This document shows, piece after piece, positions 9,444 through 47,865 of a stretch of DNA of 64,000 nucleotides; position 1 is the first letter of the stretch, and the number at the start of each line of letters is the position of its first letter. The position numbers and the translations under genes were made by a program. Origin of the DNA: Polycladomyces zharkentensis (lineage in GTDB: Bacteria > Bacillota > Bacilli > Thermoactinomycetales > JIR-001). The notes under the pieces are model-generated. The model had not been told where the DNA came from and did not search any database. It worked only from the letters and a program-made list of their open reading frames with translations. The stretch spans positions 372,001 to 436,000 of the forward strand of contig NZ_JAFHAP010000004.1 in assembly GCF_016938855.1 (NCBI RefSeq), read 5' to 3'.

Positions 9444-9514
9444 TTCTACAACACCTCTTTTGTTTGGATGGGCCATTTGTACTCTTTACTTCGCCCCAAC
9501 AGAAGGGATTTCCT

Positions 9515-12154
9515 CTATTTGCTTGAGGCTTCCAACTGTTGCCGTACAAGATCCGGAACCAAACGGAGCGCATCGTTCAATTGTTCAGGTTGCTTGCCGC
9601 CGGCCTGTGCCATGTCAGGACGTCCGCCGCCCCCACCGCCGCATTTGGCCGCCACTTCCTTGATCAGTTTTCCGGCATGCAGTCCCTCCTTCACATAGGA
9701 AGATGTCACGGCAGCCACTAATTGTACTTTATCCCCATTGACCGCACCCAATACCACAACGCATTCTTTCATCCGGTTCCGCAAATCATCCGCCATTTGT
9801 CGCAAACCGTCCATGTCGGAGACGGATACGCGGGCGGCCAAAACAGGTACCCCGTTGACTTCCTGTACCTGATCGGTCAATTGCCGGGCTTCCATCCGTC
9901 CCAGTTTGGCCCGGAGCGATTCGTTTTCACGGCTCAATTCCTTGAATCGGGTCTGCAAGGCATCCAACCGTTCCACCACTTCGGAAGGACGCGCTTTGAG
10001 ACGGTCAGCGGCTTCATGCAAAAGCTGCAACTGCTCTTCCAGATAGCGGAACGCATGACGACCGGTCACCGCTTCGATCCGCCGCGTGCCGGAGCCAATG
10101 CCGCTTTCGCTCACAATCTTGAACAATCCGATCTCACCCGTGCGGTTGACGTGCGTGCCGCCGCACAGCTCCAAGCTGTAGTCGCCCACACGGACAACGC
10201 GTACGACTTCTCCGTATTTTTCACCGAACAGCGCCATGGCTCCCATCGCCTTCGCTTCGGCAAGCGGTTTGTGGAACGTTTCCACTTCTGTGTTGGCCCA
10301 GACATGCTCATTGACCAACTGTTCCACTTTCCGGATCTCTTCGTCCGTCATGGCGCCGATGTGCGTGAAATCGAAACGAAGACGGTCGGGTGCCACCAAC
10401 GATCCGGCCTGGTTGACGTGTTCACCCAGCACGTCTTTCAACGCCCGGTGCAACAAATGGGTAGCCGTGTGGTTCTTGACGATATCCGCCCGTTTGGATT
10501 CCTCGATTTCCGCCGTTACCCGGTCTCCCTTACGGATCACGCCTTCTTCCACGCGAACGGTGTGCAGGTGTTCGCCGCGGGGGCCTTTTTGCACATCTTC
10601 CACGCGCAGGCGTGCGCCGTCACTGCGAATCCAACCCTGATCGGCCACCTGTCCCCCGCTTTCCGCATAGAACGGCGTCTCTTCCAACACGACGAGACAG
10701 GTTTCACCCGCGCCCACCATATCCACCAACTGGTCGTCATGCACCAACGCGGCCACACGCGTGTCCGTCTGCAAACGAGTGTAACCGACAAAAGTGCTCT
10801 CCACGTCCAGCTCGGCGAGCGCTCCCCCCTGCACTTGCATGCTGTCCACATCCTGCCGGGCGGCCCGGGCACGTTCGCGTTGTTCCTCCATCGCCCGTTC
10901 GAAGCCTTCCCGGTCCACTTCCAACCCGTGTTCCCGAGCAAAGTCTTCGGTCAGATCCACCGGGAAACCGTACGTGTCATACAACCTGAAAGCATCTTGA
11001 CCGGAAATGCGGCCGGTACCTTCCTCCCGGACCCGTTCCACCACCTGTGACAAAATGTGCAGCCCTTCCGATAGGGTTTCCAAAAACCGTTCCTCTTCCC
11101 CCCGGATGACACGTTCGATAAACGCCTGTTTCTCCAGGGGTTCCGGATAGTAATCCTTCATGATCTCGGCGACAACACCGGTCAATTGGTACAGGAACGG
11201 ACCGTCAACCCCCAGTTTCCGTCCATAGCGCACCGCACGGCGCAACAGGCGGCGCAACACGTATCCGCGCCCTTCGTTGGAAGGCAGTACACCGTCGCCC
11301 ACAGCGAACACGACGGTACGGATGTGGTCGGCGATCACTTTGAGCGCCACGTCCGTTTCCTTGTCTTTGCCGTACTCCACCCCGGCTTTCCGGCACGTGG
11401 TCTGAATGATCGGCTGGAACAGGTCCGTGTCATAATTCGTCGGCACGTCCTGCATCACCGAGGCCATCCGCTCCAGACCCATTCCGGTATCGATATTTTT
11501 CTTGGGCAGCGGTGTGTAGGTGCCGTCCGGGTTGTGGTTGTACTGGGAAAAGACCAGGTTCCAGATTTCGAGATACCGCTCGTTTTCCCCGCCCGGATAG
11601 CACTCCGGATCATTCGGATCACACAGATGCTCGCCGCGATCGTAAAAAATCTCCGTATTGGGTCCGCTCGGTCCTTCGCCGATATCCCAGAAGTTGGATT
11701 CCAGTTTGACGATCCGCTCATCGGGAATGCCCACTTTTTCCCGCCAAATTCGGTAAGCCTCATCATCTTCCGGGTGAATGGTGACGGAAAGACGATCGGG
11801 GTCCAATCCCATCCATTTGGGATCCGTCAGAAACTCCCATGCCCAGAGGATGGCTTCCTCCTTGAAGTAATCCCCGATCGAGAAATTGCCCAGCATTTCG
11901 AAAAACGTATGGTGACGAGCGGTGTACCCGACATTTTCGATATCGTTGGTACGGATCGATTTTTGCGCGTTGACGATGCGCGGGTTGTCCGGCGTCAACC
12001 GGCCGTCGAAGTATTTTTTCAATGTGGCCACGCCGCTGTTGATCCACAAAAGGGATGGATCATCCACCGGCACCAACGAAGCGCTGGGCTCTATCTTGTG
12101 CCCTTTCTCTACGAAGAAATCCAGAAACTTTTTTCGTATTTCGGCCGCCTTCAT
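9515..12154 (-). CDS. alaS: Alanyl-tRNA synthetase
   Basis: 879-residue class II synthetase. It starts [19 protein letters not shown], with the catalytic core [20 protein letters not shown]. The editing domain has the zinc ligands in HTATHLLH (about 562-569) and [15 protein letters not shown]. The C-terminal C-Ala domain ends in a glycine-rich [15 protein letters not shown]. Length is normal. GAGGAGGG precedes the ATG at 12154. An upstream in-frame extension lies in the T-box leader and is not coding. Expression is probably set by tRNA-Ala charging through that leader. Confidence 0.97.
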
Positions 12155-46420: not shown

Positions 46421-46459
46421 AGTGTCCCCGGTCGGGTATGGTTCCGAGCCGGGGACACT
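46421..46459 (+). terminator. Terminator-like hairpin between the small ORF and the Crp/Fnr gene
   Basis: AGTGTCCCCGG/CCGGGGACACT perfect 11-bp stem, 17-base loop, followed within 10 bases by GGATTTTTT. The remainder of the gap to 46640 holds a probable promoter. Confidence 0.7.
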
Positions 46460-46555
46460 TATGTTAGGATTTTTTAACACAATTGAAACATTATCTATTT
46501 GTTGGAACGTTATTTCCTCCCGTCCCTTCCGCACCGCTTCACGACAAGACAGCCG

Positions 46556-46640: not shown

Positions 46641-47342
46641 TTGAACCACATCGTGCATTTTTTACAAACGTTGCCCCTATTCCACGGCATCAATACGGAT
46701 GCGTTGGAAGCGGTGAGTCACACGCTGATCGAGCGAAAGTTCAAACGGGGGACAGTTGTGTGTTTGCGGGGGGAAAGAATCGACAAGGTCTTTATCGTCT
46801 ATCGGGGGAAAATCAAAATATACCGAACGGACCCGGAAGGGAGCAAGATGTTCATCTCCTATTGTCACAGCGGGGACATATTCCCGCATTTCGGTTTTTT
46901 TCGGGAGGCCTGTTTCCAGGCAGACGCCCAAGCGGTCGAGGATTCTCAACTCTTGGTCATACCCAAGGAAGACATGGAACAATTGCTCCGGTCTCATCCC
47001 GAACTCACCATCCGGTTGATTCAAACCATGGGGCAGCAAATCAGCGATCTGGAACAGCAACTGAACGAGTCCATCGTTCACGACGCATACGAGCGTGTGA
47101 TCTTTTTGCTCCTCCGCCTGGCCCGTACCGTTGGCGAGCCTCATCAACAGGGCATTTGCCTGAAGGAACGGTACACCAACCGGGAGCTTGCACAGATGAT
47201 CGGAGCCACGCGTGAAACGGTCAGCCGTGTGATGAACCGACTGAAACGAGAGGGACACGTTCATCTGCAACAGGGACATCTCGTGGTTCACGTTCACCGT
47301 TTGAAGGAGCTGGTCGATTACCCGCACATGCAAATTGGTTAA
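46641..47342 (+). CDS. Crp/Fnr-family transcription regulator
   Basis: 233-residue protein. It has an N-terminal cyclic-nucleotide-binding-type beta barrel (residues about 10-125), a long dimerisation helix (126-165) and a C-terminal HTH_Crp domain (TNRELAQMIGATRETVSRVM, 179-198). The recognition helix Glu-Thr-Val-Ser-Arg matches Crp/Fnr proteins that bind TGTGA-N6-TCACA, which occurs just downstream. Cysteines are at about 41, 75, 91 and 173. None cluster at the C terminus, unlike B. subtilis Fnr. The TTG start at 46641 has GGAGG eight bases upstream. Likely sensor role: redox, oxygen or NO. Confidence 0.85.
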   Translation: MNHIVHFLQTLPLFHGINTDALEAVSHTLIERKFKRGTVVCLRGERIDKVFIVYRGKIKIYRTDPEGSKMFISYCHSGDIFPHFGFFREACFQADAQAVEDSQLLVIPKEDMEQLLRSHPELTIRLIQTMGQQISDLEQQLNESIVHDAYERVIFLLLRLARTVGEPHQQGICLKERYTNRELAQMIGATRETVSRVMNRLKREGHVHLQQGHLVVHVHRLKELVDYPHMQIG

Positions 47343-47362
47343 ACAGAAAAAATCATGGGGAT

Positions 47363-47378
47363 GTGATTTATTTCACAT
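47363..47378 (+). promoter_or_regulatory. Perfect Fnr/Crp box
   Basis: TGTGATTTATTTCACA matches the TGTGA-N6-TCACA consensus exactly. It lies 21 bases after the Crp/Fnr gene stop and 128 bases before the haemoglobin start. An AT-rich stretch that could hold -35/-10 elements follows. It is well placed to activate or repress the globin gene. Confidence 0.85.
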
Positions 47379-47505
47379 CTATAAAATCACCTATTTGTTA
47401 CAGTTAAGACATCCTATGTGTCATATTCGACTTTTTCCCGCCTCCGTTCCATGATTGGACTCATAGATTGATTTGTCTTCGTTTTTGAAATGGAGGGAAA
47501 CAGAA

Positions 47506-47865
47506 TTGGCAACCCTGTATGAGAAGCTGGGTGGAGAAAAAGCCATTGCAGCCGTGGTGAACGAGTTCTACGATCGGATGATCAACGATGAAAACGTCAG
47601 CCATTATTTTCGATACACGGACATGGATAAACTCCGTAAGCACCAGATCAGTTACTTTATGAGCTACGCGCTGGGCGGTCCGAACAAATACGAAGGTGCC
47701 ACTCTGCGCGAATCCCACAAGGGCTTGAACATTTCGCACGAGCACTATGAAATCGCGATCAAACATCTGAACGGTGCGCTGCGCAAATACAACGTACCGT
47801 TGGAAGACCGCGTCAAAATAGAAGCATTTCTTCGCAGCGTCAAACCGCACATCATTCATAAATAA
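47506..47865 (+). CDS. Truncated haemoglobin (group I type)
   Basis: 119 residues with the 2-on-2 globin fold. It starts ATLYEKLGGEKAIAAVVNEF. B-helix FYDRM carries the distal-site Tyr, the FRYTDMDKLRKHQ E-helix region follows, and the proximal His lies in LNISHEHYEIAIKHL. Group I (trHbN) members bind O2 and detoxify NO. The TTG start at 47506 has GGAGGG eight bases upstream. It lies directly behind a Crp/Fnr regulator and a perfect Fnr box, suggesting control by low oxygen or NO. Confidence 0.92.
   Translation: MATLYEKLGGEKAIAAVVNEFYDRMINDENVSHYFRYTDMDKLRKHQISYFMSYALGGPNKYEGATLRESHKGLNISHEHYEIAIKHLNGALRKYNVPLEDRVKIEAFLRSVKPHIIHK

What the first reader, a model, noticed from the sequence alone, without database searches (positions are those of the whole stretch)
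46641..47865. Crp/Fnr regulator, perfect Fnr box and truncated haemoglobin as a unit
TGTGATTTATTTCACA lies between the regulator and a group I truncated haemoglobin gene, exactly the consensus that the regulator's recognition helix should bind. The regulator lacks the C-terminal cysteine cluster of B. subtilis Fnr, so the sensed signal may be different (four scattered cysteines, haem, NO or another ligand).
Basis: partly seen in the sequence, partly recalled or inferred. Interest (0 to 1): 0.55.

Follow-up and report, generated by a model that had tools for sequence, protein, structure and literature searches.

The report
Globin gene with neighbouring switch protein
A small haemoglobin gene sits behind a DNA switch that is probably thrown by the regulator gene next door; the pairing is real and conserved in related bacteria and most likely serves defence against nitric oxide, which makes it a new version of a known kind of switch and not a new kind.

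Summary
A Crp/Fnr regulator (46641-47342), an exact TGTGA-N6-TCACA box (47362-47377) and a group I truncated haemoglobin (47506-47865) form a unit. New here: (1) the box sits where a class II activator site should, 41.5 bases before the start implied by an extended -10, and this geometry recurs at other boxes of the genome and its relatives; (2) of 30 globin loci compared, the box (at most one mismatch) precedes the globin in 5 of 5 with the regulator adjacent and 1 of 25 without; (3) two relatives keep regulator, box and -10 but lack the genome's second Crp/Fnr, so the neighbour is the likeliest reader; (4) the regulator lacks Fe-S ligands and cAMP contacts, and one orthologue has no cysteine; (5) some Bacillaceae relatives sit beside nitrite reductase, NO reductase or flavohaemoglobin genes, some with the same box. 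Best reading: an NssR-like activator of a NO-detoxifying globin. The wiring is well supported by sequence; the signal is inferred; nothing has been tested at the bench.

The parts
46641..47342 (+). Crp/Fnr-family activator gene (233 aa, TTG start)
   Evidence: PF00027 and PF13545; recognition helix TRETVSR matches CRP R180/E181/R185; AlphaFold2 model mean pLDDT 85.5, CRP-like folds on search
47362..47377 (.). TGTGA-N6-TCACA operator, centred at predicted -41.5
   Evidence: identical in two congeners, one mismatch in Marinithermofilum abyssi (G009) and in G017
47396..47404 (+). Extended -10 element TGtTACAGT; hexamer 47399-47404
   Evidence: Same spacing from the box in G001, G002, G009 (TGTTACAGT) and G017 (TGTTAAAGT); TANNNT enriched at exactly this offset across boxes
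47411..47411 (+). Predicted transcription start of the globin (inferred)
   Evidence: Seven bases after the -10 hexamer; places the box centre at -41.5 (arithmetic)
47506..47865 (+). Group I truncated haemoglobin (119 aa, TTG start, RBS GGAGGG)
   Evidence: PF01152; closest solved chain 3aq5, distal Tyr and Gln and proximal His aligned

Best explanation
The regulator is a CRP-fold activator, by family a dimer, made from its own promoter, which has no box. When it receives its signal it binds the TGTGA-N6-TCACA box at -41.5 of the globin promoter and recruits RNA polymerase as a class II activator, switching on the truncated haemoglobin. The signal is most likely NO or another reactive nitrogen species, received in the ligand pocket of the beta-roll and not by an Fe-S cluster or cAMP; the globin then oxidises NO to nitrate. 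Supported by sequence: the parts, their geometry, their conservation, and the pairing of this regulator with this box. Inferred: activation, NO as signal, NO dioxygenase activity. My likelihoods: local regulator drives the globin by class II activation 0.78; NO or nitrosative signal 0.55.
For: Exact box between the genes. Regulator-globin adjacency in G000, G001, G002, G009 (Marinithermofilum abyssi) and G017, the five regulators forming one clade with 100/100 support. Box with at most one mismatch within 300 bases upstream of the globin in 5 of 5 adjacent loci and 1 of 25 others, Fisher p 4e-5, not corrected for relatedness. Extended -10 at the same distance from the box in all five although the leader in G009 is 52 bases longer. 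TANNNT at +22 after the box in 6 of 9 boxes of this genome (p about 2e-9) and in 34 of 126 oriented boxes of seven genomes, no other offset above 6. G009 and G017 have no orthologue of the second Crp/Fnr yet keep the box; G033 and G027 have that orthologue (71%, 53%) and a globin but no box. Of six Bacillaceae relatives whose neighbours were scanned (10 were at hand), three have a nirK-like, NorB-like or flavohaemoprotein gene (L115, L110, L112), one a COX1 and SCO1 pair (L113), one a weak hemerythrin (L117), one a helicase (L111). The 10 relative loci hold 10 exact boxes (0.03 expected), 7 of them with the -10 at +22. Recognition residues R191, E192, R196 match those of CRP; the first two are the pair that correlates with G3 and A6 of the site (PMC1274295, passages).
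Against: No binding or expression data. Three of the five genomes are congeners, so the conservation rests on about three lineages. G052 has a one-mismatch box upstream of its globin without the regulator next to it. In this genome a second Crp/Fnr with a similar recognition helix (SRESVNR) could bind the same box. NO as signal rests on neighbours of relatives at 34-43% identity, only 3 of 6 scanned being clearly NO-linked, and 5 of the 10 relative loci hold no exact box. This genome has no NO synthase hit, no narG over cut-off, and its qNOR is broken, so the source of NO would be outside. The globin lacks an N-terminal pre-A extension like that of M. tuberculosis HbN.
Confidence: 0.66

Rival explanations
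1. The globin box is read by the second, more global Crp/Fnr protein of the genome (G000:C5:116750-117442), alone or together with the neighbour; the globin is one member of a low-oxygen and nitrosative regulon with hpf, hcp, cyd and quinol oxidase genes.
For: Both proteins have RE-type recognition helices; other boxes cluster around that gene and share TGTGAAATNNATCACA, which the window box also fits in reverse.
Against: G009 and G017 lack that regulator and its regulon (2 and 5 exact boxes, 0 and 1 with a -10 at +22) but keep the globin box; G033 and G027 have it and no globin box. Several boxes of the cluster carry a further upstream element (TTCTGTGAACACCT) that the globin promoter lacks.
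Confidence: 0.2
2. Same wiring, but the regulator reports low oxygen or redox state and not NO; the globin serves oxygen handling or peroxidase-like protection.
For: The genome-wide boxes precede terminal oxidase, lactate permease (one mismatch), alcohol dehydrogenase and dicarboxylate transport genes, a low-oxygen set. Many bacterial haemoglobins are induced by hypoxia through Fnr (PMC3820574, passages).
Against: No Fe-S motif and no conserved cysteines in the globin-linked clade; some relatives sit by nirK-like, NorB-like and hmp genes.
Confidence: 0.28
3. The regulator is a cAMP-responsive CRP.
For: Best NCBIfam score is the CRP equivalog (79 bits) and the best folds are cAMP receptor proteins.
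Against: Far below the CRP cut-off of 266 bits; residues aligned to cAMP contacts E72, R82, S83, T127, S128 are H83, F92, Q93, L137, E138 (contact list recalled).
Confidence: 0.04
4. It is a B. subtilis-type oxygen-sensing [4Fe-4S] Fnr.
For: Same family, same kind of box.
Against: No C-terminal cysteine cluster; the Marinithermofilum orthologue has no cysteine.
Confidence: 0.02

Closest known systems
NssR of Campylobacter jejuni
   Same: Crp/Fnr-family regulator that controls a truncated haemoglobin (Ctb) and a single-domain globin in nitrosative stress (PMC3820574 and PMC1274295, passages)
   Different: The NssR site is TTAACnnnnGTTAA with residues A180/Q181; here the site is TGTGA-N6-TCACA with R/E, and regulator and globin are adjacent
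HcpR (Desulfovibrio) and DNR/NnrR
   Same: Crp/Fnr proteins without the Fe-S cysteine motif acting in nitrogen-oxide metabolism; Desulfovibrio HcpR has the same site wTGTGAnnnnnnTCACAw (PMC1274295, passages)
   Different: Their targets are hcp, nir and nor genes; the DNR chain 3dkw (2.4e-11) and the chain 2gau (3.1e-8; that it is an HcpR is recalled) score below CRP here
Bacillus subtilis/cereus Fnr
   Same: Same family and, recalled, the same site and -41.5 geometry
   Different: Its C-terminal C(x4)C(x2)C(x3)C cluster (PMC3520743, passages) is absent here
Thermus thermophilus catabolite activator protein (4ev0)
   Same: Closest solved structure by sequence, 3.4e-21, and a top fold match
   Different: 28% identity; no globin link known to me

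Membership tests
Crp/Fnr superfamily | N-terminal cNMP-binding beta-roll and C-terminal Crp-type winged HTH | tested here: met
   PF00027 and PF13545 over cut-off; fold
B. subtilis-type Fnr | C-terminal Fe-S cysteine cluster | tested here: not met
   No cysteine after 173; orthologue G009 has none at all
cAMP receptor protein (CRP) | cAMP-contacting residues E72, R82, S83, T127, S128 and the NCBIfam cut-off | tested here: not met
   Replaced by H, F, Q, L, E (list recalled); 79 of 266 bits
NssR-type globin regulator | Crp/Fnr protein controlling a truncated haemoglobin | tested here: inconclusive
   Adjacency, box and promoter geometry conserved; control itself not shown
NssR-type globin regulator | A180/Q181 and TTAACnnnnGTTAA site | tested here: not met
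   R191/E192 and TGTGA site
HcpR / DNR / NnrR NO regulators | NO- or nitrite-dependent activity | not testable with these tools
   Only neighbours of some relatives point to NO
Group I truncated haemoglobin | PF01152, proximal His, distal Tyr B10 and Gln | tested here: met
   PF01152 1.4e-22; Tyr and Gln align with the residues that differ in the mutant chains 3aq7 and 3aq9, His with the HKG motif; helix labels recalled
HbN-type NO dioxygenase | Pre-A extension and measured NO dioxygenation | tested here: inconclusive
   No pre-A extension in the sequence; activity not testable

The most novel reading that the evidence does not exclude
Bacilli carry a widespread, so far uncharacterised Crp/Fnr subfamily, marked by FPHxGFF at the position of E72 of CRP and RE[TS]V[SN]R in the recognition helix, whose members sense NO directly in the beta-roll pocket without Fe-S or cAMP. 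It drives denitrification genes in Bacillaceae and was coupled once to a truncated haemoglobin in Thermoactinomycetaceae. In that coupled clade the motif is loosening (FPL, FPK), and two residues at pocket positions are both cysteine in one genus (C41, C75) and both histidine in another, which could mean a changed metal or haem ligand.
Probability: 0.22. Interest if true: 0.6.

Novelty: new variant of a known kind. Interest (0 to 1): 0.42.

Why it matters
If true, it gives Gram-positive bacteria their own version of NssR control of a truncated haemoglobin, as a compact one-regulator, one-promoter unit that could be moved to a laboratory host to test what the sensor reads. It also points to a Crp/Fnr subfamily in Bacilli, linked in part to nitrite and NO reduction, whose ligand is unknown; none of the listings of the ten paper searches made here describes it, though the library holds open-licence papers only.

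Tried and rejected
Autoregulation: no box with fewer than 3 mismatches within 300 bases upstream of the globin-linked regulator in 5 of 5 genomes. Cysteine sensing: rejected as a conserved mechanism. cAMP and Fe-S: see membership tests. The first scan of globin upstream regions used the wrong strand for minus-strand loci and was replaced. A CooA-like haem ligand pair (motif recalled) was considered and dropped by eye; no call with CooA was made. Globin adjacency beyond the order was looked for only in the 61 genomes and in the 19 loci, of which only L109 has a globin in reach. The Foldseek match says CRP fold and cannot tell the ligand; rmsd is mostly 13-15 A, perhaps because domain angles differ. 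Paper searches: (nothing listed); from the listings alone, none describes a Crp/Fnr regulator next to a truncated haemoglobin in Bacillota. A plasmid search found only Thermus, Rhizobium and Roseomonas relatives at under 60% identity. L167 (around the G052 globin) was fetched and not examined further.

Full report
What is there. The window holds, on the + strand, a 233-residue Crp/Fnr protein (46641-47342, TTG start), then TGTGATTTATTTCACA (47362-47377), then a 119-residue group I truncated haemoglobin (47506-47865, TTG start). The box is the only one in the window even with three mismatches allowed; an exact box in the 163-base spacer has a chance of about 1.6e-4. The nearest larger neighbours, an AddB-like gene upstream and a NUDIX gene downstream, lie on the other strand; a 65-aa ORF without a Pfam match lies before the regulator. 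The nearest named relative found is Marinithermofilum abyssi (G009 = L109), so the source is probably a member of the Thermoactinomycetaceae; that it is a Polycladomyces is a guess.

There are 9 exact TGTGA-N6-TCACA sites in 3.32 Mb, against 2.45 expected from window composition and 2 for the reversed pattern. Apart from the globin they lie between cyd and ABC transporter genes and an hpf-hcp pair, between the second Crp/Fnr gene and a divergent alcohol dehydrogenase, twice upstream of quinol oxidase genes, twice at a dicarboxylate symporter followed by fumarase genes, at one gene without a Pfam match, and at an aminotransferase and a gene that by eye is nadB. Most of this is a low-oxygen and nitrosative-stress set.

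Promoter geometry. A hexamer of form TANNNT begins 22 bases after the box, where a -10 element falls if the box is centred at -41.5, in 6 of 9 boxes of this genome; the background rate is 1.7 percent. Over seven genomes it is seen in 34 of 126 oriented boxes, while no other offset from 10 to 49 exceeds 6. Per genome: G001 6 of 11, G002 8 of 13, G007 6 of 10, G011 7 of 13, G009 0 of 2, G017 1 of 5. Many boxes of congeners are orthologous and not independent; G007 and G011 belong to another family of the order. At the window box the element is TGtTACAGT (47396-47404), with an extended TG. It is identical in G001, G002 and G009 and TGTTAAAGT in G017, at the same distance from the box, although the leader in G009 is 52 bases longer. 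This is the layout of class II activation by CRP and, recalled, of B. subtilis Fnr.

Who reads the box. Only two intact Crp/Fnr genes were found in this genome: the window one and one on contig C5 (PF00027, 2 hits). A third, on C13, is a remnant here and in G002 and intact in G001. Of 42 genomes with a globin match, 30 gave a locus for their best match; 5 of these 30 have the regulator next door. The box with at most one mismatch lies within 300 bases upstream of the globin in 5 of 5 of these and in 1 of 25 others (G052). G009 and G017 have no orthologue of the C5 regulator (best hits 28 and 24 percent, the window-type protein itself), yet keep the box. G033 and G027 have that orthologue and a globin and no box. 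The five adjacent regulators form one clade, 100/100 (G017 is a long branch). The neighbour is therefore the likeliest reader; cross-talk from the C5 protein in this genome cannot be excluded.

What it senses. The four cysteines are 41, 75, 91 and 173; the G009 orthologue has no cysteine at all. The residues aligned to cAMP contacts of CRP are changed: E72 to H83, R82 to F92, S83 to Q93, T127 to L137, S128 to E138 (contact list recalled). R191, E192 and R196 match R180, E181 and R185 of CRP, the first two being the residues that go with G3 and A6 of the site (PMC1274295, passages). The structure model (mean pLDDT 85.5, pTM 0.60, 12 sequences) matches CRP-like folds. Relatives outside the order (34-43 percent) include L115, beside a copper nitrite reductase-like gene (TIGR02376 3.6e-57, under its cut-off), a cupredoxin and a radical SAM gene; L110, beside a protein with NorB cytochrome c-like and COX1 domains; and L112, beside a NO-inducible flavohaemoprotein (over cut-off). 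L113 has a COX1 and an SCO1 gene, L117 a weak hemerythrin match, L111 a helicase; the neighbours of the other four were not scanned. In the ten loci L110-L119 there are 10 exact boxes against 0.03 expected by shuffling, 7 of them with the -10 at +22, those 7 in L113, L115 and L116; L110, L111, L112, L114 and L117 have no exact box. So part of the family is linked to nitrogen oxides, and part to this box, and NO or a related species is the most likely signal. This step is inference.

The globin. Its distal Tyr and Gln and proximal His align with those of Tetrahymena truncated haemoglobin. HbN of M. tuberculosis has a TyrB10-GlnE11 pair at the bound oxygen and potent NO dioxygenase activity (PMC3493545, listing and passages). 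The globin here has no pre-A extension. This genome has no NO synthase hit, no narG over cut-off, and one qNOR that is broken by an in-frame stop and shifts of frame, so NO would come from outside.

Known or new. A Crp/Fnr regulator of a truncated haemoglobin is known: NssR and Ctb in Campylobacter (PMC3820574, passages). This one differs in DNA site, lineage and gene order, and belongs to a subfamily for which the listings of ten paper searches gave no description. I file it as a new variant of a known kind, with wiring well supported by sequence and an open signal.

Noticed in passing
L077 (G000:C5:104000-123500): Cluster around the second Crp/Fnr gene with hpf, Hcp, two hemerythrin genes, alcohol dehydrogenase, quinol oxidase and cyd genes under TGTGA boxes; several boxes are preceded by a further conserved TTCTGTGAACACCT stretch that the globin promoter lacks.
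   Followed up: partly
L188; L077 around 9498-10031, minus strand: A NorB-like NO reductase gene is present only in this genome of five searched and is broken by a stop and shifts of frame.
   Followed up: partly
L080, L085, L086: A second truncated haemoglobin with a near-box upstream (one mismatch in G000 and G001, two in G002) and a third Crp/Fnr gene close by that is intact in G001 and a remnant in G000 and G002.
   Followed up: partly
L089 3184-3199; L132, L134, L164: TGTGAAAGGAATCACA is identical in G000, G001, G002 and G017, in G000 between an aminotransferase and a nadB-like gene, but has no -10 at +22; it may belong to another regulator.
   Followed up: no
L128, L129, L137: TGTGACTTGCTTCACA recurs in G001 and G002 without a -10 at +22 and may lie in a repeated element.
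   Followed up: no
L081, L082: In G009 and, by eye, G017 the globin is followed by a rhodanese-domain gene, MnmH-like by eye, not seen in the window; a NUDIX gene follows in the window and, by eye, in G017.
   Followed up: no
Regulator residues 41 and 75: Both cysteine in the genus, both histidine in G009, at positions aligned to I30 and L64 of CRP; that these line the pocket is recalled.
   Followed up: partly
46424-46461: GC-rich inverted repeat (GTGTCCCCGG...CCGGGGACAC) before the regulator, probably a terminator of the 65-aa ORF upstream (by eye).
   Followed up: no
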